This document shows positions 8,446 to 17,578 of a stretch of 36,225 nucleotides of DNA, one piece after another. Origin of the DNA: an uncultured Sphingorhabdus sp. (GTDB taxonomy: Bacteria > Pseudomonadota > Alphaproteobacteria > Sphingomonadales > Sphingomonadaceae); the NCBI GenBank assembly GCA_937944295.1, contig CALDZL010000036.1, positions 1 through 36,225 on the forward strand, written 5' to 3'. A program made the translations under genes and the position numbers. How positions within the stretch are numbered: position 1 is the stretch's first letter; every line of letters begins with the position of its first letter. Below the pieces are notes generated by a model. The model was not told the DNA's origin and did not search any database. It worked only from the letters and a program-made list of their open reading frames with translations.

Positions 8446-10063
8446 TTTCAAACTCGGTTATTTTTCCATTGGGCAATCCTAATGCGCCAACCACCAAAGC
8501 AATGAAGGTAATAGCTATTGTATACCAAAGTCCTGCATAAAGATCACCTGTGAAGGCTACGATTACACTGGCGATTAACGGTAAAAATCCACCAAAATAA
8601 CCTGCGCCAATATGATAGGGTATCGACATGCTACTGTAGCGCACCTTGGCTGGAAACATTTCTGACAAGAGCGCAGCCACAGGCCCATAGGTAGCACCAG
8701 ATAGAGCGCTTAATCCCACCAATGCTAAAATGATGAAGATAATATTTTGAGCTGGTGGTGTGACGGGTGCGAAATCATATCCTGCTTCGGCTAAGGCTGT
8801 GTCAATCCTCTCATTGGAACGCGCAATTTGTTCATCATTATCATAATTCAAGTCTATCAATGTTTCAGAACCAATATTTAAAATGGGCCCACCTTCCCCC
8901 TTTACCACATCATAAGGCAGTGATTTGCTTGCAACAGATTGGATAATATTGCCGCATTGGCTTTCTTGTTTATCCGCAAAAGGGTTATAATCGCATTGCT
9001 CTCCGCTAATTGTGATGGGCGCTTTTTCTAGCGCTGCGGATAAATTGGGATTGGCTTGACTACCAATAGTCCAAAATAGCGGGAATACGGCGATAATCGT
9101 TAGAGCATATCCCCATATGATCGGTTTTTTACGGCCAATTTTATCGGATAATCTCCCAAAATAGACAAAGAAACCGAGGCCGCAAGCCGCAGCCAAACCT
9201 ACAATCATTTCTGCAACCACGGGTTCAACACGCATTGGTCCCTTTAAGAATGTTAGTCCGCTAAACATGGCCGTATACCAGATTACGGTCAGTCCAGCAG
9301 CCACGCCAAATAATGCTATCAATATACGCTTGGTATTGCCAGGATAGGTAAAGCTTTCTTTGACAGGGTTTTTTGCGATCTCACCCGCTTCTTTCATCGC
9401 TTTAAAAACAGGGCTCTCGGATAATTTTAACCGCATCCATAATGATATAGCCAACAATATGAGCGATAAAAGAAAAGGAACACGCCAGCCCCAGCTTTCC
9501 CACACATCCGTTGGCATTAAATATCGGCAGGACAATACGACAATAAGGCTAAGCACAAAACCGCCCGCTACGCTCGCTTGGATGAAGCTGGTATAAAAAC
9601 CGCGTTTTTCAGGCGGGCTATGTTCCGCAACATAGATGGCCGCTCCGCCATATTCACCTCCAAGAGCTAGACCTTGCATAATGCGTAACAAGATAATGAT
9701 AATCGGTGCGGCAATCCCAATAGTAGCAGCTGAGGGCAGCAAACCAACCCCCGCTGTTGCGATGCCCATCAGAGTGACCGTCACCAAAAATGTATATTTA
9801 CGGCCTACTTTATCGCCAAGGAAACCAAATAATACAGCGCCTAAGGGACGAAAGCCAAAACCAACGGCAAAGCCAGCCCACACCAACAATGTTTCTAATG
9901 TCTGATTGCCGCTCGGGAAGAATGTCGTGCCAATAATAGCGGCTAAAGTACCGTAAATGAAAAAATCATACCATTCAAAAATCGTTCCCGCCGAAGATGC
10001 GGCGATAACCAATCTAATTTCTTTTTTGCTCGGAACATGTTGTTCTATTGCGACTTCAGACAT
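8438..10063 (-). CDS. MFS transporter, metabolite:H+ symporter (MHS) family
   Basis: Inner-membrane proton symporter of the ProP/KgtP-like family; substrate unknown (dicarboxylates, osmolytes or similar are usual). It has 541 residues. N-terminal signatures are GTIFEWYDFFIYG, FGFRPLGAVLFGFLGDKVGRK (residues 70-90) and the loop motif EHSPPEKRGFYTS. A second FGRLSDKIGRKKPI lies in the C-terminal half. Between membrane segments, about residues 330-425, is a roughly 95-residue hydrophilic insertion with two cysteines (GEQCDYNPF and ESQCGN) and an acidic stretch. Similar inserts occur in one MHS subgroup. The gene overlaps alr at its 3' end; a terminator separates it from sodB upstream. Confidence 0.9.
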   Translation of the reverse strand: MSEVAIEQHVPSKKEIRLVIAASSAGTIFEWYDFFIYGTLAAIIGTTFFPSGNQTLETLLVWAGFAVGFGFRPLGAVLFGFLGDKVGRKYTFLVTVTLMGIATAGVGLLPSAATIGIAAPIIIILLRIMQGLALGGEYGGAAIYVAEHSPPEKRGFYTSFIQASVAGGFVLSLIVVLSCRYLMPTDVWESWGWRVPFLLSLILLAISLWMRLKLSESPVFKAMKEAGEIAKNPVKESFTYPGNTKRILIALFGVAAGLTVIWYTAMFSGLTFLKGPMRVEPVVAEMIVGLAAACGLGFFVYFGRLSDKIGRKKPIIWGYALTIIAVFPLFWTIGSQANPNLSAALEKAPITISGEQCDYNPFADKQESQCGNIIQSVASKSLPYDVVKGEGGPILNIGSETLIDLNYDNDEQIARSNERIDTALAEAGYDFAPVTPPAQNIIFIILALVGLSALSGATYGPVAALLSEMFPAKVRYSSMSIPYHIGAGYFGGFLPLIASVIVAFTGDLYAGLWYTIAITFIALVVGALGLPNGKITEFENG

Positions 10064-10142
10064 TATTTACCCCTCATTCTGGTTTCATAATTATGATGAA
10101 AACCAAAGTTTCCCATTCTCTTAACAAAATTATGGGCGCAGA

Positions 10143-10174
10143 AAAGCCCCAAAACTATATTTCAAGTTTTGAGG
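10143..10174 (-). terminator. Rho-independent terminator after sodB
   Basis: On the minus strand a 10-bp stem (CCTCAAAACT with AGTTTTGGGG, one G-U pair) and an 8-base loop are followed by CTTTTCT, starting about 30 bases past the sodB stop. It should end the sodB transcript ahead of the transporter gene. Confidence 0.7.
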
Positions 10175-10206
10175 CTATTCCTAATTTTATGATATAGTGC
10201 TTTAAT

Positions 10207-10827
10207 TCAGCCTTGATCAGCGCGAGACACGCCATTGCCATCTAAATTCTGCGCAACGAAATCCCAATTGATGCTATTTTCCAACAAAGCATCTAAATAG
10301 CTAGGACGGGCATTGCGATAATCCACATAATAAGCATGCTCCCATACATCAAGTGTCAATAATGGTGTCATGCCATGCGTAATAGGCGTATCAGCATCAT
10401 GCAAAGATGTAATTTCAAGCTTATCATTGTTCAAAATCAACCAAGCCCAACCACTGGCAAAATGGCCAACGCCTTCTGCTTTAAACTTCTCGATAAAGCC
10501 CTCTGTAGAACCAAATGCATCATTGATCATTTCTTTTAACTTGCCAGTAGGCGCTTGTTTTTCTGGTGAAAGTCCGAGCCAATAAAAGCTATGATTCCAA
10601 ATCTGCGCGCTATTGTTAAATAAACCTACATTACCAGTATCTTTGGCTATTTGAACAACTTTGGAGAGGCTGGCGCCTGATAGGCTATTATCTGCTGCAA
10701 CAAATTCATTGGTTTTACCAACATAAGCATTGTGATGTTTGCCATGATGATAATCAAATGTTTCGGCCGAAATAATATCGCCAAAACTGTCTTTAGCATA
10801 AGGCAAATCAGGAAGAATGAATGTCAT
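10207..10827 (-). CDS. sodB: Superoxide dismutase, iron type
   Basis: Cytoplasmic enzyme dismutating superoxide to peroxide and oxygen. It has 206 residues. Metal ligands sit in FDYHHGKHHNAYV (first His, residue 27), WNHSFYW (second His) and DVWEHAYYVDYRN (Asp and His). FNNSAQIWNHSFYW with glutamine in this position and GHFASGWAWL indicate the iron-cofactor subtype rather than manganese. There is no signal peptide. It is monocistronic in appearance, with its own terminator and about 75 bases to pspF upstream. Confidence 0.95.
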   Translation of the reverse strand: MTFILPDLPYAKDSFGDIISAETFDYHHGKHHNAYVGKTNEFVAADNSLSGASLSKVVQIAKDTGNVGLFNNSAQIWNHSFYWLGLSPEKQAPTGKLKEMINDAFGSTEGFIEKFKAEGVGHFASGWAWLILNNDKLEITSLHDADTPITHGMTPLLTLDVWEHAYYVDYRNARPSYLDALLENSINWDFVAQNLDGNGVSRADQG

Positions 10828-10902
10828 AGTACGTCCTTTATCATGTTAAATTTAAATCTGTTTAATCATAATATTAGTAAATGTCATGTCCCAATGACCA
10901 TA

Positions 10903-11958
10903 TTAGCCCAACATATCATATTTTTTTAAGCAATGGCGCAATTGGTCATAGCTAAGATTTAATGCTGCTGCGGTTTGCCGTTGATTATAGCGGTGTTTTT
11001 CCATCGCCGCTTCTAATATCATTTTTTCATAAGTTTCAGAGGCTTTTCGGAAATCATTAATATCAATAGGTAAGATATTATCTTGTGCATCATTTTGAGA
11101 TATATCACTGTTATCATCATTATTCGCTGTCGATGTGGTGGGTTGTAAAGATGATGCGGAAGATATGTTAGAACCGCTTGGAGACCAAATAGATTCGAAC
11201 GGATCAAATTCGATGTGGTTAATTGCCACATTGGCATTGCCCGATCGATATACGGCGCGCTCTACTACATTACGCAATTCGCGCACATTGCCAGGCCAAG
11301 CATAGTCATCCAGCTCTTTTTTTGCCATATCATCAAAACCAGGCCAGCTGTCCCAACTGAGTTCAGCTGCCATTCTGCGGCCAAAATGATCAGCCAATAC
11401 TTCAACATCGCCTTCGCGTGCACGCAAGGGTGGTAACGTTATCACTTCAAACGATAAGCGATCAAGCAAATCAGCTCTAAATTTATAATCATCTACCATC
11501 TTAGGCAAATTCTCATTGGTAGCCCCGACGATACGAACATCGACATTGACAGGTTTTGATGAACCAATGCGATTTATTTCACCATATTCGACGGCGCGCA
11601 ACAATCTCTCTTGCGCACCCATTGAGAGCGTTCCGAGTTCATCCAAAAATAATGTACCACCATCAGCTTCTTCAAAACGCCCCGCCCGTGTCTTGGTGGC
11701 GCCTGTAAAAGCTCCTGCCTCATGGCCAAATAATTCGGCCTCTATCAGAGTTTCTGGTAAAGCAGCGCAGTTCATGGTGACCAGCGGTCCATCCCAGCGA
11801 AGACTTAATCGGTGTAGCCTTTCAGCTATCAATTCTTTACCCGTGCCGCGCTCACCAACGACTAATATTGGACGTTCCAACGTTGCGGCTTGGCTCGCTC
11901 GATCCAAAGCATCCAAAAATGCCGTTGATTGCCCAATAAATTGACTCGCTCGCTCCAT
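10903..11958 (-). CDS. pspF: Phage shock operon activator PspF
   Basis: Bacterial enhancer-binding AAA+ ATPase that drives sigma-54 transcription of the psp operon and is inhibited by PspA. The protein lacks an N-terminal sensory domain, as in E. coli PspF. It has Walker A (GERGTGKE), the sigma-54 contact loop ELFGHEAGAFTGA, Walker B (GGTLFLDE), the arginine-finger segment FRADLLDRLSFEV and WPGNVRELRNVVERAVYR. An asparagine/serine-rich linker (about 265-305) leads to a Fis-type helix-turn-helix (YNQRQTAAALNLSYDQLRH). The ATG at 11958 is preferred over a TTG two codons upstream. It is divergent from pspA, and the shared 160-base gap contains the sigma-54-type promoter. Confidence 0.95.
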   Translation of the reverse strand: MERASQFIGQSTAFLDALDRASQAATLERPILVVGERGTGKELIAERLHRLSLRWDGPLVTMNCAALPETLIEAELFGHEAGAFTGATKTRAGRFEEADGGTLFLDELGTLSMGAQERLLRAVEYGEINRIGSSKPVNVDVRIVGATNENLPKMVDDYKFRADLLDRLSFEVITLPPLRAREGDVEVLADHFGRRMAAELSWDSWPGFDDMAKKELDDYAWPGNVRELRNVVERAVYRSGNANVAINHIEFDPFESIWSPSGSNISSASSLQPTTSTANNDDNSDISQNDAQDNILPIDINDFRKASETYEKMILEAAMEKHRYNQRQTAAALNLSYDQLRHCLKKYDMLG

Positions 11959-12056
11959 TACCAAACATTAGCATTAAATTCATATTATTAGCAATATATA
12001 CTATATGTAAATTTAAGAAAAATTATTTTATCATTATATTACAGTACTTTAAAAAT

Positions 12057-12072
12057 TGGCACACTTTTTGAT
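12057..12072 (+). promoter_or_regulatory. Sigma-54-type promoter for the psp operon
   Basis: TGGCACACTTTTTGAT matches the -24/-12 pattern: GG at 12058-12059, ten bases, then GA (consensus GC) at 12070-12071. The predicted transcription start is near 12083, about 45 bases before the ATG at 12127. Position between pspF and pspA supports it. I see no clear PspF enhancer repeat in 11965-12050, which is otherwise AT-rich. Confidence 0.7.
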
Positions 12073-12126
12073 ATACATCTATTAAATTCACTTAAAGCAT
12101 GGGGTAAGCCGATAGAAAGAAATATA

Positions 12127-12345
12127 ATGAACAATATATCTAGCAATTCATCTTCTGGACCATCAAGTGAAACGTCCCCAAATGCGCATCAAAATTCACT
12201 TAGCGGCCCGGATATGCGATCAGAGCTGGCACCAATCCCCCCAAATGAGGCTCTCTCTCCTCAAAAAAGCTTGGCTCTGATCGCGCCCCTCTATAAAGAT
12301 AAAGAATATTTTCGCCAATATCAGCAAATAAAACGGAGCTTCCCT
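12127..12345 (+). other. In-frame leader or N-terminal extension of pspA
   Basis: Seventy-three codons starting with ATG at 12127 run without a stop straight into the PspA frame. The first half is Ser/Asn/Pro-rich; the second half reads PLYKDKEYFRQYQQIKRSF. Normal PspA begins at 12346, where a good GGAG ribosome-binding site (12335-12338) stands 7 bases before the ATG. The predicted sigma-54 start lies about 45 bases before 12127, so both starts are on the mRNA. This stretch could be a long PspA isoform, a leader peptide or simply untranslated leader. Confidence 0.4.
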
Positions 12346-13023
12346 ATGGGTATATTTTCACGAACACGCGACATAGTCGCCGCCAACTTTGCCGATATGC
12401 TCGACAAATCAGAAGATCCTACCAAGATGATCCGCATGATCATTTTGGAAATGGAGGAAACATTGGTCGAGGTTCGTGCCTCTGCGGCGCGAACTATTGC
12501 GGATAAAAAGGAATTATCCCGTCATATTGAAAAATTGGATACACTTCAAAAAGATTGGACTGAAAAAGCGCAATTGGCCCTGTCCAAGGGCCGTGAAGAT
12601 TTGGCTAAAGCTGCATTGGTTGAAAAACGCAAAGCCAGCGAAATGTATTTTCAATTGAGCGCAGAAGTTGCCGTGTTGAGCGATGCTCTTACTGCCAATG
12701 AAAAAGACATATCTATGCTGCAAAAGAAATTGGCTGATGCCCGTTCACGACAAAATGGATTAATGACACGATTAGAAAGCGCAGAAAATCGAGTAAAATT
12801 ACGCACCATGTATAATGGCGACAAGGTTCAAGAAGCTTTCTCTCGCTTTGATATATTGGAACGCGAAGTTGATTATACTGAGGGCCGTGCTGAGGCCTTG
12901 GGTATGGGCAATGAAGGTCCGCAAAGCCTCGGCGATGAAATTGCTGCTTTAGAATCGGTTGATGAAATTGACGAGGAATTAGAAGCTATGAAAAAAGCCT
13001 TAGATACGAAGAAGGAAGTTTAA
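12346..13023 (+). CDS. pspA: Phage shock protein A
   Basis: Peripheral membrane protein of the PspA/IM30 (ESCRT-III-like) family, which restrains PspF and stabilises damaged inner membrane. From this start it has 225 residues, almost the E. coli length. The conserved N-terminal amphipathic start is MGIFSRTRDIVAANFADML, followed by DPTKMIRMIILEMEETL and a long all-helical coiled-coil body up to about residue 190. The C-terminus is acidic. I chose 12346 because the family N-terminus and a strong ribosome-binding site coincide there. An open in-frame extension back to 12127 exists (see separate entry). pspB follows after 3 bases. Confidence 0.95.
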   Translation: MGIFSRTRDIVAANFADMLDKSEDPTKMIRMIILEMEETLVEVRASAARTIADKKELSRHIEKLDTLQKDWTEKAQLALSKGREDLAKAALVEKRKASEMYFQLSAEVAVLSDALTANEKDISMLQKKLADARSRQNGLMTRLESAENRVKLRTMYNGDKVQEAFSRFDILEREVDYTEGRAEALGMGNEGPQSLGDEIAALESVDEIDEELEAMKKALDTKKEV

Positions 13024-13026
13024 GAA

Positions 13027-13326
13027 ATGCCAGATGAATTTATTGCAATAATCATCGTAGGAATGTTGTTTATAGGCTTGCCATGGTTGATATTTCATTA
13101 TGTTACCAAATGGAAAACCGCTGCAACGCTGACCAATGATGATGAACGTATGCTAGAAGAAATGAACGCGCTGAGCCGCCGTCTCGAAGAACGTCTTGAA
13201 ACCGTAGAACGCCTTACCGCGCAAGAAAACCCAGGATGGACACCGCGCCGTATTGCTAATGAAGATAGGCAGAGATTTATAGCTCATAAAGACCAATCCG
13301 CTAATCAAAATGTAGGGAGAAAATAA
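13027..13326 (+). CDS. pspB: Phage shock protein B
   Basis: Small inner-membrane protein that, with PspC, senses envelope stress and recruits PspA. It has 99 residues. One membrane helix (about 5-25, FIAIIIVGMLFIGLPWLIF) is followed by a cytoplasmic coiled coil with LEERLETVERLTAQENPGW, the recognisable PspB pattern. The tail (about 25 residues) is longer than in E. coli. It is 3 bases downstream of pspA and 1 base before pspC, with ribosome-binding site AAGGA overlapping the end of pspA. Its coiled coil resembles those of the four small proteins encoded downstream. Confidence 0.92.
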   Translation: MPDEFIAIIIVGMLFIGLPWLIFHYVTKWKTAATLTNDDERMLEEMNALSRRLEERLETVERLTAQENPGWTPRRIANEDRQRFIAHKDQSANQNVGRK

Positions 13327-13327
13327 A

Positions 13328-13708
13328 ATGGCGAGCGACAGAACCAAATTTTACCTCGACAAGCAAAATGCCAAATGGAAAGGCGTTTGCGCGGGCATTG
13401 CCGATTATACAGGTATTGATTCTACATGGGTTAGATTAGGTGCCGTATTATTAACATTCATGGGCGGCTTTCCATGGACTCTCATTGCTTATGCAGCAGC
13501 TGCGATGATTGGCGATAAAAAACCGCTTCATCTCTATGAAGATGCGCAGCAGCAAAAATTTTGGCAAGGTGTACGTCAATCTCCTGCTCGGACAACGCGC
13601 GAGTTAAAATCGCATTTTAGAGAGATTGATAATCGTCTTGCTGATTTGGAAATTTATTACACCAGCAGCAATAAGCAACTCGCCGATGAAATCGATAGTT
13701 TACGTTAA
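13328..13708 (+). CDS. pspC: Phage shock protein C with a C-terminal coiled-coil tail
   Basis: Inner-membrane stress sensor. It has 126 residues. The PspC domain spans about residues 5-70: KWKGVCAGIADYTGIDSTWVRLGAVLL, then the membrane segment GFPWTLIAYAAAAMI. After it, residues about 90-126 form a helical tail, IDNRLADLEIYYTS then ADEIDSLR at the very end. That tail matches the C-termini of the small proteins encoded next to it. Ribosome-binding site GGGAGA precedes the ATG, 1 base after the pspB stop. Confidence 0.92.
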   Translation: MASDRTKFYLDKQNAKWKGVCAGIADYTGIDSTWVRLGAVLLTFMGGFPWTLIAYAAAAMIGDKKPLHLYEDAQQQKFWQGVRQSPARTTRELKSHFREIDNRLADLEIYYTSSNKQLADEIDSLR

Positions 13709-13729
13709 ATTTGATTACAGGAGAAGTCT

Positions 13730-14020
13730 ATGAATTTCGCAGGTCCGCAATTTGTTATAGCCATTATAGTCGTTTGTTATGCAGGATGGATCATTAACAA
13801 TTGGGTTCGTGCAAAATATGGATATGACTTAGAAGATGAATGGGGTGGAAAAACACCCCCCTCTCTGCCCGATACCGAACGCAAAATTGAATTGCTCAGC
13901 AATGAGAATGAAAATTTAACCGGGAGAATAAGCAATTTAGAAGAACGTATAGCTGTCTTAGAACGTATCGCTACTGACAAGTCTAGCCGCCTCTCCGATG
14001 AGATAGAAAATTTAAGATAG
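13730..14020 (+). CDS. PspB-like small membrane/coiled-coil protein 1
   Basis: Function unknown; probably an accessory part of the Psp membrane complex. It has 96 residues. A membrane helix (about 8-24) is followed by the basic/aromatic segment WVRAKYGYDLEDEWGG, then a leucine-heptad coiled coil (LSNENENLTGRISNLEERIA), the module LEERIAVLERIATD and the ending SDEIENLR. I do not recognise a named family, but the order helix-linker-coiled coil is that of PspB. It lies 21 bases behind pspC with an AGGAG ribosome-binding site and belongs to the same transcript. It is clearly a paralogue of the next gene. Confidence 0.88.
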   Translation: MNFAGPQFVIAIIVVCYAGWIINNWVRAKYGYDLEDEWGGKTPPSLPDTERKIELLSNENENLTGRISNLEERIAVLERIATDKSSRLSDEIENLR

Positions 14021-14028
14021 GAATAATC

Positions 14029-14370
14029 ATGTCAATAGATGCTGCCGCAACAATAATACCTTACATACCCGCCTTTGTATTTGGAGGATTAACGATAGCC
14101 GCTGCTGGTATAGCAGGATGGGTTTACACTACCAAATTACGTATCAAAAATGGATATCCTTTAGATGGTACATGGGGGCAAGCAATTTACCCCAAAACGG
14201 ACCAGGAGGCGGTCGAGCGCGTAAAATTATTGAGCCAAGAAAATGCACAATTACGCGCGGAATTGGGTTCCATCAAAGACCGTATGGCCAATGTCGAAAA
14301 AATCATTGTTGATGACACGCATAAATTAACGAGCGAAATCGAAGCTTTGCGCGATAAACCTCTAAACTAA
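14029..14370 (+). CDS. PspB-like small membrane/coiled-coil protein 2
   Basis: Unknown function; tandem paralogue of the preceding gene. It has 113 residues. The membrane helix is at about 12-32 (IPAFVFGGLTIAAAGIAGWV). RIKNGYPLDGTWGQ corresponds to RAKYGYDLEDEWGG of paralogue 1. The coiled coil VKLLSQENAQLRAELGSIKD leads to the module IKDRMANVEKIIVDD and ending TSEIEALR. The topology suggests a short N-terminus outside and the coiled coil in the cytoplasm (inference). It is 8 bases behind paralogue 1 with an AGGA ribosome-binding site. Confidence 0.88.
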   Translation: MSIDAAATIIPYIPAFVFGGLTIAAAGIAGWVYTTKLRIKNGYPLDGTWGQAIYPKTDQEAVERVKLLSQENAQLRAELGSIKDRMANVEKIIVDDTHKLTSEIEALRDKPLN

Positions 14371-14385
14371 TAAGGAAGTCCCCAC

Positions 14386-14655
14386 ATGAATCCGTTTGAA
14401 ATGGTCGTAGCCATCGTTATCATTGTTACCATCGGTAAAGTTATCAGCACACGCTATAAAACAAAACATGGTATCATCGAAGATAATGCTGGCAATCAAA
14501 AATTAGCCCCTGCACAAGTTACGCAAGATAATGATGCACAAAGCCAAGAAATAAAGAACTTAAAAGAACGTGTTCAGATTTTAGAACGTATTGTTACTGA
14601 TAATAGTAAAGCGATTGATTTGGACCGCGAGATTGAAAGCCTGCGTAATACATAG
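14386..14655 (+). CDS. PspB-like small membrane/coiled-coil protein 3
   Basis: Unknown function; third tandem paralogue. It has 89 residues. A short membrane helix (about 4-20, FEMVVAIVIIVTIGKVI) is followed by RYKTKHGIIEDNAG, which aligns with the R-x-K-x-G segment of paralogues 1 and 2. Then come a polar linker, the module LKERVQILERIVTD and ending DREIESLR. Ribosome-binding site AAGGAAG; 15 bases behind paralogue 2. Confidence 0.87.
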   Translation: MNPFEMVVAIVIIVTIGKVISTRYKTKHGIIEDNAGNQKLAPAQVTQDNDAQSQEIKNLKERVQILERIVTDNSKAIDLDREIESLRNT

Positions 14656-14690
14656 TCCCAGGAAGATTATATGAATATAGAAAGGAGTTT

Positions 14691-14936
14691 ATGATGACCC
14701 AAGACACCAATTTTTATATTGCTTTTGCTAGCGTAAGCCTTTTTGCTCTTACACTTACCGCTTATACCATCGTCCGTATGTGGAATCAATGGATTGATCT
14801 TAAACGAGCAGAACTTCATAATTATCAAGATGATAATAATTACAATTCTCCCTCACCAATGTCACGTATCGAAGTTGCCGACCTCAAAGAACGGGTGCGC
14901 AAATTAGAGGCTATCGCGGCAGGTATCGATATCTGA
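14691..14936 (+). CDS. PspB-like small membrane/coiled-coil protein 4
   Basis: Unknown function; fourth and most divergent member of the row. It has 81 residues. A membrane helix (about 9-27) is followed by WNQWIDLKRAELHNYQ and the shortened coiled coil LKERVRKLEAIAAG at the end. It lacks the EI-x-LR ending of the others. A strong AAAGGAG ribosome-binding site precedes two adjacent ATG codons (14691 and 14694). A seven-codon frame at 14671-14694 ends exactly over this start, which may couple translation. It is probably the last psp gene; 56 bases separate it from sufE. Confidence 0.85.
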   Translation: MMTQDTNFYIAFASVSLFALTLTAYTIVRMWNQWIDLKRAELHNYQDDNNYNSPSPMSRIEVADLKERVRKLEAIAAGIDI

Positions 14937-14992
14937 GCTCCTACACTAATTTTGCTAATGACTAACCATAGTCTCGATGCTAATGCCCCGCT

Positions 14993-15397
14993 ATGAGCAA
15001 AATTGATGATATATATGAAGAATATGATTTTCTCGATGCTGATGATCGTTATCGATTATTAATAGATTTGGGCCGTGAATTGTCTGAAATGCCAGCAGCG
15101 CTAAAAAATGATGCGACTTTGGTGCGCGGTTGCAGCGCATCTGTCTGGGTTTATCCGACACAAAATGAGGATGGAAGCCTCAATTTTTTGGCCGATAGCA
15201 ATGCATCAATCACCAAAGGTATTATCGCGCTTGTGCTACTTACCGTGCAAAATCAAAGCGCCGCCGATATTATTAAAATTGATATAAATGAGAAACTAGC
15301 GCCGTTTAATCTAACCGCACAATTATCATCTAATCGCACGCAAGGCATACCCAATATGATTGCATTGATTCAAGAAACGGCAAGACGATACATATAA
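14993..15397 (+). CDS. sufE: Cysteine desulfuration protein SufE
   Basis: Accepts persulfide sulfur from the cysteine desulfurase SufS and passes it to the Fe-S scaffold. It has 134 residues. The sulfur-accepting cysteine is Cys47 in LVRGCSASVWVYP. Other conserved parts are the N-terminal YRLLIDLGREL and the late LSSNRTQGIPNMI (usual form LSPNRxxGxxxM). No other suf gene is present in the window. The ribosome-binding site is poor. It may be read through from the psp operon because no terminator is visible in 14937-14992. Its stop codon abuts that of the convergent minus-strand gene. Confidence 0.92.
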   Translation: MSKIDDIYEEYDFLDADDRYRLLIDLGRELSEMPAALKNDATLVRGCSASVWVYPTQNEDGSLNFLADSNASITKGIIALVLLTVQNQSAADIIKIDINEKLAPFNLTAQLSSNRTQGIPNMIALIQETARRYI

Positions 15398-15904
15398 TTA
15401 TGAGACCGCTGATAATTTGGTTTCAAATGTTTTGCGCCATGTATCACCATTTTTGCGTTCGCCAAATTCATTCCAGATTCCGCTGTCTAGCCGTTGAAAA
15501 GTCAACCGAAAATCCCTGTTCTTTGTATAGCAAATAAATTGATCTTCATTCGTTAAAGTGCATGTAAACGGCCGCGTTCCATTGGCGCTGTAAGGCGAAT
15601 AAATATAATGCCCTGTTTTGCTATCAAAATATATGACGGTATGTAATTGATAAGTTGTTTTGCCATCTTGGCTCCCGCGCGCATTGATTAGCAAAATCTG
15701 TCTATCAAGATCATAACGGATAAATTCCTCATCATGATATTTAGAGACCGAACCATCCGCAGAATAAGATAATCCCTCACCAGCCCAATTACCAACTAAG
15801 AAATTTAACTTTTCCATCGCTGTCTCTACGGTTTCCTCTGACGCAGCAATCACAGGGCTTATGCTTATATAAGATAAAGCAAGTATAGATAATAATGTTC
15901 TAAT
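15398..15904 (-). CDS. Putative secreted small protein of unknown function
   Basis: I do not recognise the family with confidence. From the first canonical start (GTG at 15853) it has 151 residues. The pattern FLVGNWAGEGLSYSADG, alternating beta-strands and tryptophan-containing ending (TWRKTFETKL) resemble small lipocalin-like/DUF1579-type beta-barrel proteins. Upstream of the GTG the frame stays open and encodes a good signal peptide (RTLLSILALSYISISPVIA, then AS). No ATG, GTG or TTG precedes it in frame before the end of the J-domain gene. The only plausible initiator there is ATT at 15902-15904, used here as the tentative boundary. Exported location and start are inferences. Confidence 0.6.
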   Translation of the reverse strand: MRTLLSILALSYISISPVIAASEETVETAMEKLNFLVGNWAGEGLSYSADGSVSKYHDEEFIRYDLDRQILLINARGSQDGKTTYQLHTVIYFDSKTGHYIYSPYSANGTRPFTCTLTNEDQFICYTKNRDFRLTFQRLDSGIWNEFGERKNGDTWRKTFETKLSAVS

Positions 15905-15917
15905 GAAGTGGGTGATG

Positions 15918-16454
15918 TTATTGTCCTCTCCAAACCCGCTGCTCTTCGGCCATTTTCAGAACATCAAAAGCGGCCTGCCCTTGCTGAAATTTGATCTCGG
16001 CTTCTTTATTACCAGGGTTAACATCGGGATGGGTTTCTTTGGCGATTTTGCGCCATGCCAATTTAATTTCATCCATAGTGGCATCGCTATCCAGATCAAA
16101 AAAATCAAGCGCAGTCATCTCATCGCGGCTGCGGCTGCCATCGCCGCTACCCATCCAACCATAATGGGCAGTTTCTTTATAGCCTGAATAATCGCTTTTT
16201 TCCTGCGCTTCTCGTGCTGCAGCTTCTTCTTTGTCAAGGCCTTCAAAATAATCCCAACCGCGATTATATTCTGCGGCATGTTTTTCACAGAACATCCACC
16301 TATCAGGGTTATTAGGAGATTTAGGCGCAGGACAGGTCCCCGCTTCATTACAATTATGGCGATCACATAATTTAACGGTTTGCGCCTCGCGGCCACCGTT
16401 ATAACTTCCCCAACGTGGAAAACCCCAACTATCTTTTCGTCTATTACCAGCCAT
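15918..16454 (-). CDS. J-domain protein with an N-terminal cysteine cluster
   Basis: Probable co-chaperone stimulating a DnaK-type Hsp70. It has 178 residues. The J domain is C-terminal (about 115-178): ALDFFDLDSDATMDEIKLAW, then the HPD tripeptide at 142-144 (KETHPDVNPG), which contacts Hsp70. The N-terminal half has cysteines at 30, 35, 41 and 56 and nearby histidines (CDRHNCNEAGTC and MFCEKH), suggesting a metal site. It ends with NRGWDYFEGLDKEEA. Proteins of this layout are widespread in alphaproteobacteria and are not DnaJ itself, which has an N-terminal J domain and a central zinc finger. It precedes the small secreted protein gene by 13 bases and follows rnpB. Confidence 0.88.
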   Translation of the reverse strand: MAGNRRKDSWGFPRWGSYNGGREAQTVKLCDRHNCNEAGTCPAPKSPNNPDRWMFCEKHAAEYNRGWDYFEGLDKEEAAAREAQEKSDYSGYKETAHYGWMGSGDGSRSRDEMTALDFFDLDSDATMDEIKLAWRKIAKETHPDVNPGNKEAEIKFQQGQAAFDVLKMAEEQRVWRGQ

Positions 16455-16517
16455 ATCAGTCTATTAACGTCCTCTATCAATTTTTGCCACCAAAGAATAA
16501 TATAATAAGAAAATTAT

Positions 16518-16884
16518 CAGAGGGTTTATAAGCCGGGTTCTGTCCAGCGCAATGCGCCTGTGCGACCATTCATCTAGGAATGAGATTACTCTCATCCTCA
16601 AGCAACCAACCCGAACAACTGCTTTGGAATATAGCTGGACCGAAGCCGCGTTGTTCCTATTTGGTTTTGCTCCAACTAGGGTTTACCATGCCATGATTGT
16701 TACCAATCACGCGGTGCGCTCTTACCGCACCCTTTCAAAATCACATATCAATGATATGAGGTCTGTTCTCTGTTGCACTTTCCCTAAGGTTTCCCTTGCC
16801 GGCAATTAACCGGTAGTTTCATTCCATGGAGCCCGGACTTTCCTCGTTCCAACGAATATCTTCACGCGGTCGCCCAACCCTCTG
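16518..16884 (-). ncRNA. rnpB: RNase P RNA (bacterial type A)
   Basis: Catalytic RNA that trims the 5' leader of tRNA precursors. On the minus strand the 5' part has GAGGAAAGTCCGGGCTCC, the 3' part has ACAGAACCCGGCTTA, and the ends pair as P1 (CAGAGGGTT with AACCCTCTG). These are universal RNase P RNA elements. Ends are set by P1, giving about 367 nt. A U-rich stretch follows the 3' end. Open reading frames crossing it are coincidental. Confidence 0.95.
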
Positions 16885-16906
16885 ATGGGAAACTAATAAC
16901 AGAATT

Positions 16907-17578
16907 TTATTCGACTTCCAACAATAATGCATATAATATAGATCGGCATTCACCATCCATCATGCCATCCACTTTATTGGGACGAAAGCGCCGCTGGAAA
17001 GCGGTTATCATTTTGTCACTTGCTGCATTGCCATAGCCATATTGCTGTAACTTTTGGATGAAGCTTTCTTCATTCCAAACAGGGTCGAGAAGGCTTTCTA
17101 CAGGTCTTTTCATGGCCAATTTATGTTTGGCGAGATAGTCCCAATCAAATAACTCCCCAGGATCTTGCTTTCTATCGGGAGCAATATCGCTATGGCCAAT
17201 GACATTATACCGTTCAATATTATGGCGTTTGACTATTTTTTTTGCTAGTCTCTTCACAGATTTCATCTGTTCTTTTGGAAAAGGGCGATAACCCCATTCA
17301 TGCCCTGGGTTAACAATTTCAATCCCAATGCTGGCACTATTTATATCTGTAATGCCGCGCCAATAGGATAGACCAGCATGATGCGCCCTATTTTCTTCTT
17401 TGACCATATGTATGATTTGCCCATCTTCTTCTACGACATAGTGCGCAGAAACACCTGATTCAGGGTTCGCAAGCCAATTTATTGCGGATGGGCCATCCTG
17501 CATTCCTGTATAATGCATAACCAAAATAGATATAGGAAGTGTGCGGGTACCAAAATTAGGGGAAGGTGTCCAAATCAT
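16907..17578 (-). CDS. N-acetylmuramoyl-L-alanine amidase, AmpD family, with C-terminal PG-binding-like domain
   Basis: Zinc amidase that cleaves the bond between N-acetylmuramic acid and L-alanine in muropeptides. It has 223 residues. The Amidase_2 domain covers about 1-150: ILVMHYTGM (zinc His22), SAHYVVEEDG, NSASIGIEIVNPGHEW, and VIGHSDIAPDRKQDPG with the second zinc His and the Lys/Asp pair. Residues about 175-220 (GYGNAASDKMITAFQRRFRP, then DGECRSILYALL) look like a peptidoglycan-binding helical domain. There is no signal peptide, so it probably recycles anhydro-muropeptides in the cytoplasm like AmpD/AmiD-type enzymes (inference). It lies 54 bases behind cheR; a hairpin ends one base before its ATG. 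Confidence 0.9.
   Translation of the reverse strand: MIWTPSPNFGTRTLPISILVMHYTGMQDGPSAINWLANPESGVSAHYVVEEDGQIIHMVKEENRAHHAGLSYWRGITDINSASIGIEIVNPGHEWGYRPFPKEQMKSVKRLAKKIVKRHNIERYNVIGHSDIAPDRKQDPGELFDWDYLAKHKLAMKRPVESLLDPVWNEESFIQKLQQYGYGNAASDKMITAFQRRFRPNKVDGMMDGECRSILYALLLEVE

What the first reader, a model, noticed from the sequence alone, without database searches (positions are those of the whole stretch)
13027..14936. Phage-shock operon expanded by four tandem PspB-like membrane/coiled-coil genes
Behind pspA-pspB-pspC are four consecutive genes for proteins of 81-113 residues, each with one membrane helix and then a coiled coil. Their coiled coils align with each other and with PspB: LEERLETVERLTAQ (PspB), LEERIAVLERIATD, IKDRMANVEKIIVDD, LKERVQILERIVTD, LKERVRKLEAIAAG. 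The first three also share an R-x-K-x-G segment after the membrane helix and an EI-x-x-LR end. This looks like serial duplication and divergence of a PspB-type adaptor, giving a multi-subunit stress sensor in place of the usual PspB/PspC pair. No standard psp operon I know of has this row. The function is unknown.
Basis: partly seen in the sequence, partly recalled or inferred. Interest (0 to 1): 0.8.

Follow-up and report, generated by a model that had tools for sequence, protein, structure and literature searches.

The report
Sphingomonad phage-shock operon with accessory array
In sphingomonad bacteria the phage-shock (membrane-stress) operon carries an extra row of small membrane proteins with a shared coiled-coil tail and varying heads, which may act as additional membrane anchors or sensors for this stress response.

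Summary
Behind pspABC lie four same-strand genes (96, 113, 89, 81 aa), each with one hydrophobic segment and a coiled-coil-like tail, under purifying selection, behind a sigma54-type site next to pspF. Orf1-3 are clear paralogues. Orf4 is only a probable distant relative.

The row is not peculiar to this genome: all 80 named sphingomonad loci fetched (chosen for having orf1) carry a version of it. It is an array, (F/G)-A-B-C-D-E between pspC and sufE, of 2-9 genes in nearly fixed order; the window has A, B, D, E. PspB is not shown to be its source. The array genes group with a separate small-protein family found in 0-3 copies elsewhere, and in window sequences the best Psp match is the PspC C-terminal tail, not PspB. 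PspB and the PspC tail are weak, distant kin. Heads differ more than tails between paralogues, and head/tail chimeras occur.

Best mechanism (inferred): C-in membrane anchors whose constant PspC-like tail docks on PspA/PspBC, while variable heads tune sensing. A 2024 survey already notes 'PspB duplicates' in some psp operons. I found no description of this array in the papers searched.

The parts
10903..11964 (-). pspF, sigma54 activator of the psp operon (divergent)
   Evidence: TIGR02974 484.9 bits, cut-off 443.55
12057..12072 (+). sigma54 -24/-12 type promoter site TGGCACACTTTTTGAT before pspA
   Evidence: 10 of 11 consensus positions (consensus recalled); a site of >=9/11 in 111 of 112 pspF-pspA gaps vs 4 of 112 mononucleotide-shuffled gaps; many records are held twice, so not independent
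12127..13023 (+). pspA (core PspA starts at the internal ATG 12346; in-frame 73-codon extension upstream)
   Evidence: TIGR02977 268.5 bits from residue 74
13027..13326 (+). pspB
   Evidence: PF06667 82.2 bits, TIGR02976 82.6 bits
13328..13708 (+). pspC; its C-terminal tail (LKSHFREIDNRLADLEIYYTSSNKQLADEIDSLR) resembles the tails of orf1-3
   Evidence: TIGR02978 123 bits
13730..14020 (+). orf1 = array family A: membrane helix, RAKYGY..EDEWGG, coiled-coil tail
   Evidence: 33 members in genus loci, window included; alignments A1, A7; AlphaFold2 helices 6-30, 47-95
14029..14370 (+). orf2 = array family B: membrane helix, RIKNGYPLDG.WGQ, coiled-coil tail
14386..14655 (+). orf3 = array family D: membrane helix, coiled-coil tail; family C, found between B and D in many relatives, is absent from the window
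14691..14936 (+). orf4 = array family E: membrane helix, short coil SRIEVADLKERVRKLEAIAAGIDI; only probably related to A-D
14993..15397 (+). sufE, conserved downstream boundary of the array (not part of it)
   Evidence: PF02657 111.8 bits; 69 of 80 named loci show both pspC and sufE around the array, the other 11 lack a sufE hit in the stretch held

Best explanation
Orf1-orf4 are accessory membrane components of the Psp response. PspF and sigma54 transcribe them with pspABC from the site at 12057 (inferred from sequence). Each is a single-pass inner-membrane protein with a short N-terminus outside and a coiled coil in the cytoplasm (inferred from the charge pattern). The constant tail (L-x-[ED]-R-x3-LER-I-x-TD-x5-L-x-x-EI-x-x-LR) resembles the C-terminal tail of PspC and, more weakly, the coil of PspB. 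I propose that it forms mixed coiled coils with PspB/PspC and gives PspA extra docking sites at the membrane. More docking sites would release PspF and hold PspA oligomers at damaged membrane. The divergent membrane helices and juxtamembrane segments would set where or when each subunit engages. The array grows and shrinks by duplication, loss and recombination within the shared coil, so species differ in subunit sets (2-9 genes). Shown here: gene row, family relations of A-D, conserved order, sigma54 site, tails more alike than heads, chimeras. Inferred: topology, co-transcription, PspA/PspBC binding, sensing.
For: Operon: gaps of 1-56 nt, no + strand terminator-like site between pspA and sufE, sigma54-type site in 111 of 112 pspF-pspA gaps. 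Linkage: 80 of 80 named loci carry pspC plus array genes (chosen for having A); in the 69 with sufE too, order A-B-C-D-E holds in 67. In 33 of 33 genus rows with both anchors the order is the same. In a second family of the order (f8) a single homologue follows pspB-pspC (gene order read in L067, L075, L160, L166), and by coordinates in 6 of the 9 f8 genomes with a match. Relation: orf1-3 to PspC tail z 4.1-5.1; homologues from outside the genus hit the NCBIfam PspC model in 15 of 15 and the PspB model in 14 of 15, E <= 0.1. Constant tail, variable head: paralogue identity in tails 0.36-0.49 vs heads 0.21-0.38, tails higher in 6 of 6 family pairs, though barely for A-B, 0.41 vs 0.38. Chimeras: L054 gene A ends in B-like DNA, L051 has a C-like head on a D tail. 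Literature: in E. coli the PspC 69-119 fragment interacts with PspA only with PspB present and then induces psp (PMC3068692, section 22 read).
Against: No binding, topology or expression data. The PspC/PspB kinship is weak: profile probabilities of A-D and S with PspB or PspC are 5-88% and 3-91%, window-protein hits to the NCBIfam models are far below cut-off, and one coiled-coil control pair (S with PspA) reached z 7.1, as high as some PspB/PspC pairs. PspB and PspC themselves are barely alike here (z 0.5, 3.2). Orf4 has no link to PspB or PspC (E-pspB z -1.0, E-pspC z 0.4). Homologues also exist away from psp genes in other families, so the family is not Psp-specific. Sigma70-like consensus matches occur inside the array (16 in the region vs 10.8 +- 3.5 expected, both strands), so internal promoters are not excluded. 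Orientation of the E. coli PspC C-terminus is disputed.
Confidence: 0.5

Rival explanations
1. One reading: the four genes arose by serial duplication of pspB in this operon and form a multi-subunit PspB-type stress sensor.
For: Same architecture as PspB (N-terminal membrane helix, then coil). One array gene of another sphingomonad passes the Pfam PspB cut-off (G261, 32.8 bits) and a D gene scores 24.0, just below 25.6 (G276). A second gene of PspB type follows pspC in a genome of another family (L159). [quoted passage not shown]
Against: No orf is listed against Pfam PspB at E <= 1; PspB is a separate branch 100/99 (only 80 columns, bootstrap not settled); families A-D and F are far closer to family S than to PspB; the PspC tail matches orf1-3 better.
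Confidence: 0.15
2. Structural effectors, not sensors: the array proteins act only as membrane scaffolds for PspA oligomers or as membrane stabilisers, comparable (from recall) to PspG/PspD of enterobacteria, without signalling.
For: Position behind the signalling genes in the operon; tails conserved within each family; gene number varies freely between relatives, which suits dose more than a defined circuit.
Against: The tail resembles the PspC region that E. coli work ties to PspA contact and induction; nearly fixed order and distinct conserved heads per family (e.g. GW..NW.RA..GY.LE.EWGG in A) suggest specialised roles.
Confidence: 0.25
3. The genes are co-transcribed neighbours with another membrane function (for example envelope assembly or cell division coiled-coil adaptors) and no direct role with PspA.
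For: Homologues lie away from psp genes in several families, e.g. beside genes that look by eye like rpoD or a GAF-domain gene (coordinates); sub-cut-off hits of orf1 and orf3 to DivIC and of orf2 to ZapB and other coiled-coil models.
Against: Linkage to pspC in 80 of 80 named loci chosen by orf1, psp linkage also in another family, tail similarity to PspC.
Confidence: 0.1

Closest known systems
PspB (PF06667, TIGR02976)
   Same: small, one N-terminal membrane helix, then a coil with L-x-x-R-x3-[LV]E pattern, same operon
   Different: lacks the TD-x5-L-x-x-EI-x-x-LR end; orf1-4 do not reach the PspB models; separate branch in the tree
PspC C-terminal tail (TIGR02978 positions ~86-121)
   Same: best Psp match of the orf1-3 tails, ungapped over 34 residues with orf1, same EI-x-x-LR end
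   Different: no PspC domain (PF04024) in the orfs
S family: unnamed small membrane coiled-coil proteins (about 66-93 aa in the members used), 0-3 per genome in other families of the order; a few in other classes
   Same: closest relatives of A, C and D outside the arrays by profile (99.4-99.6%)
   Different: not in long arrays (tandem pairs in L161, L162); mostly not beside psp genes, except in family f8
[quoted passage not shown]
   Same: extra PspB-type genes within pspFABC
   Different: one clause; section 17 and the passages I saw give no array, fixed order, chimeras or sphingomonads ('sphingomonad' occurs 0 times); organism of the example and supplement not checked

Membership tests
PspFABC operon (sigma54/PspF type) | pspF next to a pspABC run with a sigma54 site before pspA | tested here: met
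PspFABC operon (sigma54/PspF type) | orf1-4 transcribed with pspABC | not testable with these tools
   indirect only: short gaps, no + strand terminator-like site, internal promoters not excluded
PspB (PF06667 / TIGR02976) | orf1-4 reach the curated model score | tested here: not met
   no PF06667 row at E <= 1; TIGR02976 12.0 bits (orf1), 14.3 (orf3), none listed for orf2 and orf4, cut-off 51.7
PspB (PF06667 / TIGR02976) | clusters with PspB in a tree | tested here: not met
   PspB rows form their own branch, no window orf in it; 80 columns only
PspB (PF06667 / TIGR02976) | one N-terminal membrane helix plus cytoplasmic coil | tested here: met
   hydropathy and charge, orf1 model; side of the membrane inferred
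PspC (PF04024 / TIGR02978) | PspC domain | tested here: not met
   no PF04024 row for orf1-4; TIGR02978 12.5, 18.1, 14.6 bits for orf1-3, none for orf4, cut-off 104
Array family A-B-C-D-F/S (defined here) | orf1, orf2, orf3 mutually homologous and homologous to S | tested here: met
   hhalign A-B 99.9, A-D 99.6, B-D 99.2, A-S 99.6, B-S 97.2, D-S 99.5; column-shuffle controls
Array family A-B-C-D-F/S (defined here) | orf4 (family E) homologous to A-D | tested here: inconclusive
   hhalign E-C 93.3, E-D 86.3, E-A 47.7, E-B 10.0; window z 2.2-3.2
PspD / PspG effectors of enterobacteria | sequence or fold similarity | not tested
   no direct comparison was run; no such family appeared

The most novel reading that the evidence does not exclude
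Sphingomonads built a combinatorial membrane-stress sensor. An expandable, ordered cassette of single-pass proteins carries one constant PspC-like docking tail and interchangeable membrane/juxtamembrane heads. Recombination in the shared coil shuffles heads and tails between species, so that different envelope stresses feed into one PspA-PspF switch.
Probability: 0.2. Interest if true: 0.75.

Novelty: new variant of a known kind. Interest (0 to 1): 0.5.

Why it matters
The Psp response is usually described as PspA plus the PspB/PspC pair. If a common bacterial group routinely adds 2-9 further membrane subunits with a PspC-like tail, then how PspA is recruited and how many signals feed PspF become testable by natural variation: relatives lack single members, have chimeras, or carry up to nine. 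In the one annotated record looked at (Sphingomonas parapaucimobilis) these genes are called only hypothetical proteins.

Tried and rejected
Serial PspB duplication: tested by Pfam/NCBIfam, profile comparison, tree and shuffles; not supported as the source. Peculiarity of this one genome: rejected by the surveys. Solved structures: no PDB sequence match for profiles of orf1 or PspC at E <= 0.1. AlphaFold2 of PspC was poor (mean pLDDT 61.6), so the two tails were not compared as folds, and no fold search was run, because a membrane helix plus one long helix would match trivially. Rfam at gathering thresholds found no RNA element in the operon in 10000-17000, only RNase P RNA further on. Family G (51-53 aa by profile) showed no relation to the others, but is counted in array sizes. 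Literature: 'phage shock' + PspB + PspC + Sphingomonas gave 0 papers. The other searches gave listings only, save for papers opened: passages of PMC11237479 plus its section 17, passages of PMC9239133, passages of PMC3068692 plus its section 22, one passage of PMC5443232. None of what I saw describes this array. Only open-licence PMC papers were searchable and no supplement was read.

Limits: the 80 named loci were selected by orf1 similarity, so presence of A there is by construction, and several are the same records as genus loci. The tree is a sample of 92 rows on 80 columns. hhalign z-values used 25 column shuffles, and one negative control (S-PspA) was high. Names of neighbours of stand-alone homologues were given by eye. 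The listing of array ORFs was cut in output; one search replaced it. Rows dropped before counts: one search left out 11 of 80 loci without a sufE hit and array hits under 40 aa; the genus order count left out 5 of 38 rows lacking pspC or sufE (L031, L032, L035, L056, L057); one search left out hits under 48 aa; the S alignment A5 used 15 of 18 loci from outside the genus (L065, L068, L069 left out); G003 had no match and no locus was taken.
Full report
WHAT IS THERE. The operon reads pspF (-), pspA, pspB, pspC, orf1, orf2, orf3, orf4, sufE, with the known genes confirmed by Pfam and NCBIfam. The four orfs are 96, 113, 89 and 81 aa, on one strand, with gaps of 21, 8, 15 and 35 nt in front of them. 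Each has one strongly hydrophobic segment near the N-terminus with net charge 0 or -1 before it and two or three K/R in the 15 residues after it, which by the positive-inside rule places the coil in the cytoplasm (inference). orf1 is modelled as a helix 6-30 and a long helix 47-95 (mean pLDDT 76.7, pTM 0.35). They behave as real genes: dN/dS of orf1-4 is 0.05-0.17 against L033 and L055.

TRANSCRIPTION. A sigma54-type site TGGCACACTTTTTGAT lies at 12057-12072 before pspA, the only site with at least 9 of 11 positions and the GG/G core on the + strand between 11951 and 15100. Of 112 pspF-pspA gaps examined (window included, many records held twice), 111 hold such a site, against 4 of 112 mononucleotide-shuffled gaps (the consensus is recalled). 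No + strand terminator-like site was found between pspA and sufE; sigma70-like matches inside the region were 16 against 10.8 +- 3.5 expected (both strands), so internal promoters are not excluded. Co-transcription is likely but not shown.

ARE THE FOUR RELATED? Cytoplasmic parts were compared with shuffles that keep the hydrophobic/polar pattern: orf1-orf2 z 10.1, orf1-orf3 7.7, orf2-orf3 6.0 (0, 0 and 1 of 2000 shuffles as high). orf4 has z 3.1, 2.2 and 3.2 with orf1, orf2 and orf3, against 2.3 with the unrelated PspA coil. Profiles built from relatives give A-B 99.9%, A-D 99.6%, B-D 99.2%, A-C 99.0%, A-F 99.1%; E gives 93.3% with C, 86.3% with D, 47.7% with A and 10.0% with B. So orf1-3 are paralogues, and orf4 is a probable distant member at best.

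ARE THEY PspB? In window sequences the PspC tail is the better match: z 4.9, 4.1, 5.1 for orf1, orf2, orf3 against PspC (0, 4 and 2 of 2000 shuffles as high), and 2.4, 0.9, 3.3 against PspB (53, 371 and 10 of 2000). At profile level both are weak and uneven: with PspB, A 77.8%, B 15.5%, C 84.0%, D 2.6%, S 17.5%; with PspC, A 75.4%, B 83.1%, C 66.0%, D 37.6%, S 91.1%. Column shuffles leave 0 of 25 as high for these ten pairs, but a control pair, S with PspA, was also above all 25 (z 7.1), while A-PspA and D-PspA were not (1 and 19 of 25 as high), so profile scores between coils must be read with care. PspB and the PspC profile are themselves only z 3.2 apart from chance. Further support for distant kinship comes from the libraries: the homologues S hit the NCBIfam PspC model in 15 of 15 and the PspB model in 14 of 15 members at E <= 0.1, best E 7e-5 and 9e-5, and Pfam PspB in 10 of 15, best E 0.0013, where the next family, unrelated, had 5 of 15. 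In the order-wide PspB search one array gene (G261; L157:4771-5064) scored 32.8 bits, over the 25.6 cut-off, and one D gene (G276, L158) scored 24.0. In the tree (92 sampled rows, 80 columns, bootstrap not settled) PspB forms its own branch (100/99) with the G261 gene next to it (96/87); C and E are branches of 100/100; A, B, E and F group only weakly (67/90); S, C, D and PspB lie together on the other side (96/100). The simplest reading is that the array genes belong with the S-type family, a third branch beside PspB and the PspC tail, and were not copied from pspB in this operon.

HOW GENERAL IS IT? In the genus, 36 of 37 genomes hold a match to orf1 or a paralogue at E <= 0.01. Classified loci show pspC-[F][G]-A-B-C-D-E-sufE, members present or absent, in this order in all 33 rows with both anchors. 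Sizes run from 2 (L029, L037) to 7 (L042, L051). The window lacks C, which L030, L033 and L055, its nearest relatives by pspA identity (84-92%), have. Among 80 named loci picked for having A (Sphingorhabdus, Sphingomonas, Sphingobium, Sphingopyxis, Blastomonas, Parasphingopyxis, Sphingosinicella, Pacificimonas and unnamed sphingomonads), all 80 show pspC and array genes; 69 also show sufE. Array sizes in these 69, family G counted, are 2 (1), 4 (18), 5 (29), 6 (18), 7 (2) and 9 (1), and order A-B-C-D-E is kept in 67; exceptions are L081 (Pacificimonas) and L149 (Sphingosinicella terrae, nine genes). In a sample of 99 genomes of the order a profile of array and S proteins (A6) matched all 38 genomes of the window's family with 2-6 matches, and 45 of 61 genomes of other families with 1-3. 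Pfam PspB matched 93 of the 99, 90 of them once; one genome of the window's family, G225, has two A6 matches and no PspB. In 144 genomes across the class A6 matched 3, all in the window's family, while PspB matched 16, so 13 PspB genomes had no A6 match. Across the phylum A6 matched 17 of 199: 9 in the family, 2 elsewhere in the class, 6 in other classes, these eight with 1-2 matches. So the array is a trait of the window's family in these samples, and low-copy homologues exist elsewhere. In family f8 of the order a homologue follows pspB, pspC and a short second PspC-type gene (L067, L075; L160, L166); by coordinates this holds for 6 of the 9 f8 genomes with a match. Shared ancestry of the two linkages is not excluded. 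In one genome of a further family a second gene of PspB type follows pspC (L159).

CONSTANT TAIL, VARIABLE HEAD. Between paralogues of one genome, tails are more alike than heads in six of six family pairs (44-70 loci each): 0.36-0.49 against 0.21-0.38, with A-B nearly equal (0.41 and 0.38). There are chimeras. In L054 the end of gene A and the DNA behind it match B (alignment score fraction 0.83 against 0.22 in the last window), and no separate B is found there. In L051 a D tail carries a C-like head (0.44 against 0.15 at the start, 0.23 against 0.92 at the end). L036 shows the same less strongly, L045 weakly and L026 hardly; controls L038 and L053 stay A throughout. Recombination inside the shared coil is the natural reading.

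HOW IT MAY WORK. In E. coli, PspC residues 69-119 interact with PspA when PspB is present and then induce psp; the leucine zipper there is reported as required (PMC3068692, section 22 read; the topology is disputed in the same paper). Proteins that display a similar tail from the membrane could add docking sites for PspA or join PspB/PspC coils. This is inference; binding, topology and expression were not testable here.

WHAT IS KNOWN. [quoted passage not shown] That is the nearest statement found; I could not check the organism or the supplement. In the main texts of that survey and of the 2022 survey PMC9239133 the word 'sphingomonad' does not occur. In the one annotated record looked at, Sphingomonas parapaucimobilis, the four genes annotated between pspC and sufE are all 'hypothetical protein'.

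VERDICT.

Noticed in passing
window 12127-12345: pspA carries an in-frame 73-codon extension before the usual PspA start (ATG 12346, preceded by GGAG). An open frame of 59-80 codons is also present, with differing sequence, in 8 of 13 relatives examined, all 8 in the genus (L033, L055, L030, L021, L028, L036, L042, L031); dN 0.06, dS 0.26 against L055. It may be an N-terminally extended PspA isoform or a coupled upstream frame.
   Followed up: partly
genus loci, between pspC and orf1 (e.g. L028:5780-5935): A 51-53 aa protein (family G, FTLIILGLIGWFAYRHFAKKKR...) in 20 genus loci, without coiled coil and unrelated to the array families by profile.
   Followed up: partly
L058:5876-6247: In G022 a 123 aa protein away from psp has a cysteine-containing N-terminal part (CPKC...CDEC) joined to an orf1-like coiled-coil tail.
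   Followed up: no
L067, L075, L160, L166: psp operons of family f8 have a second, short PspC-type gene between pspC and the S-type gene; in L067 and L075 an ORF of 183-188 aa follows, which I did not identify.
   Followed up: partly
L161, L162: Away from psp genes, two S-type genes stand in tandem in G218 and G221.
   Followed up: no
L167: In Sphingomonas parapaucimobilis the whole psp operon with its array lies on an 880 kb record labelled plasmid.
   Followed up: no
window 16513-16885 (-): RNase P RNA, class A.
   Followed up: no
window 10207-16454: Gene order superoxide dismutase - pspF - psp operon - sufE - J-domain gene (first and last named by eye in the window) resembles that annotated in Sphingomonas parapaucimobilis.
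   Followed up: no
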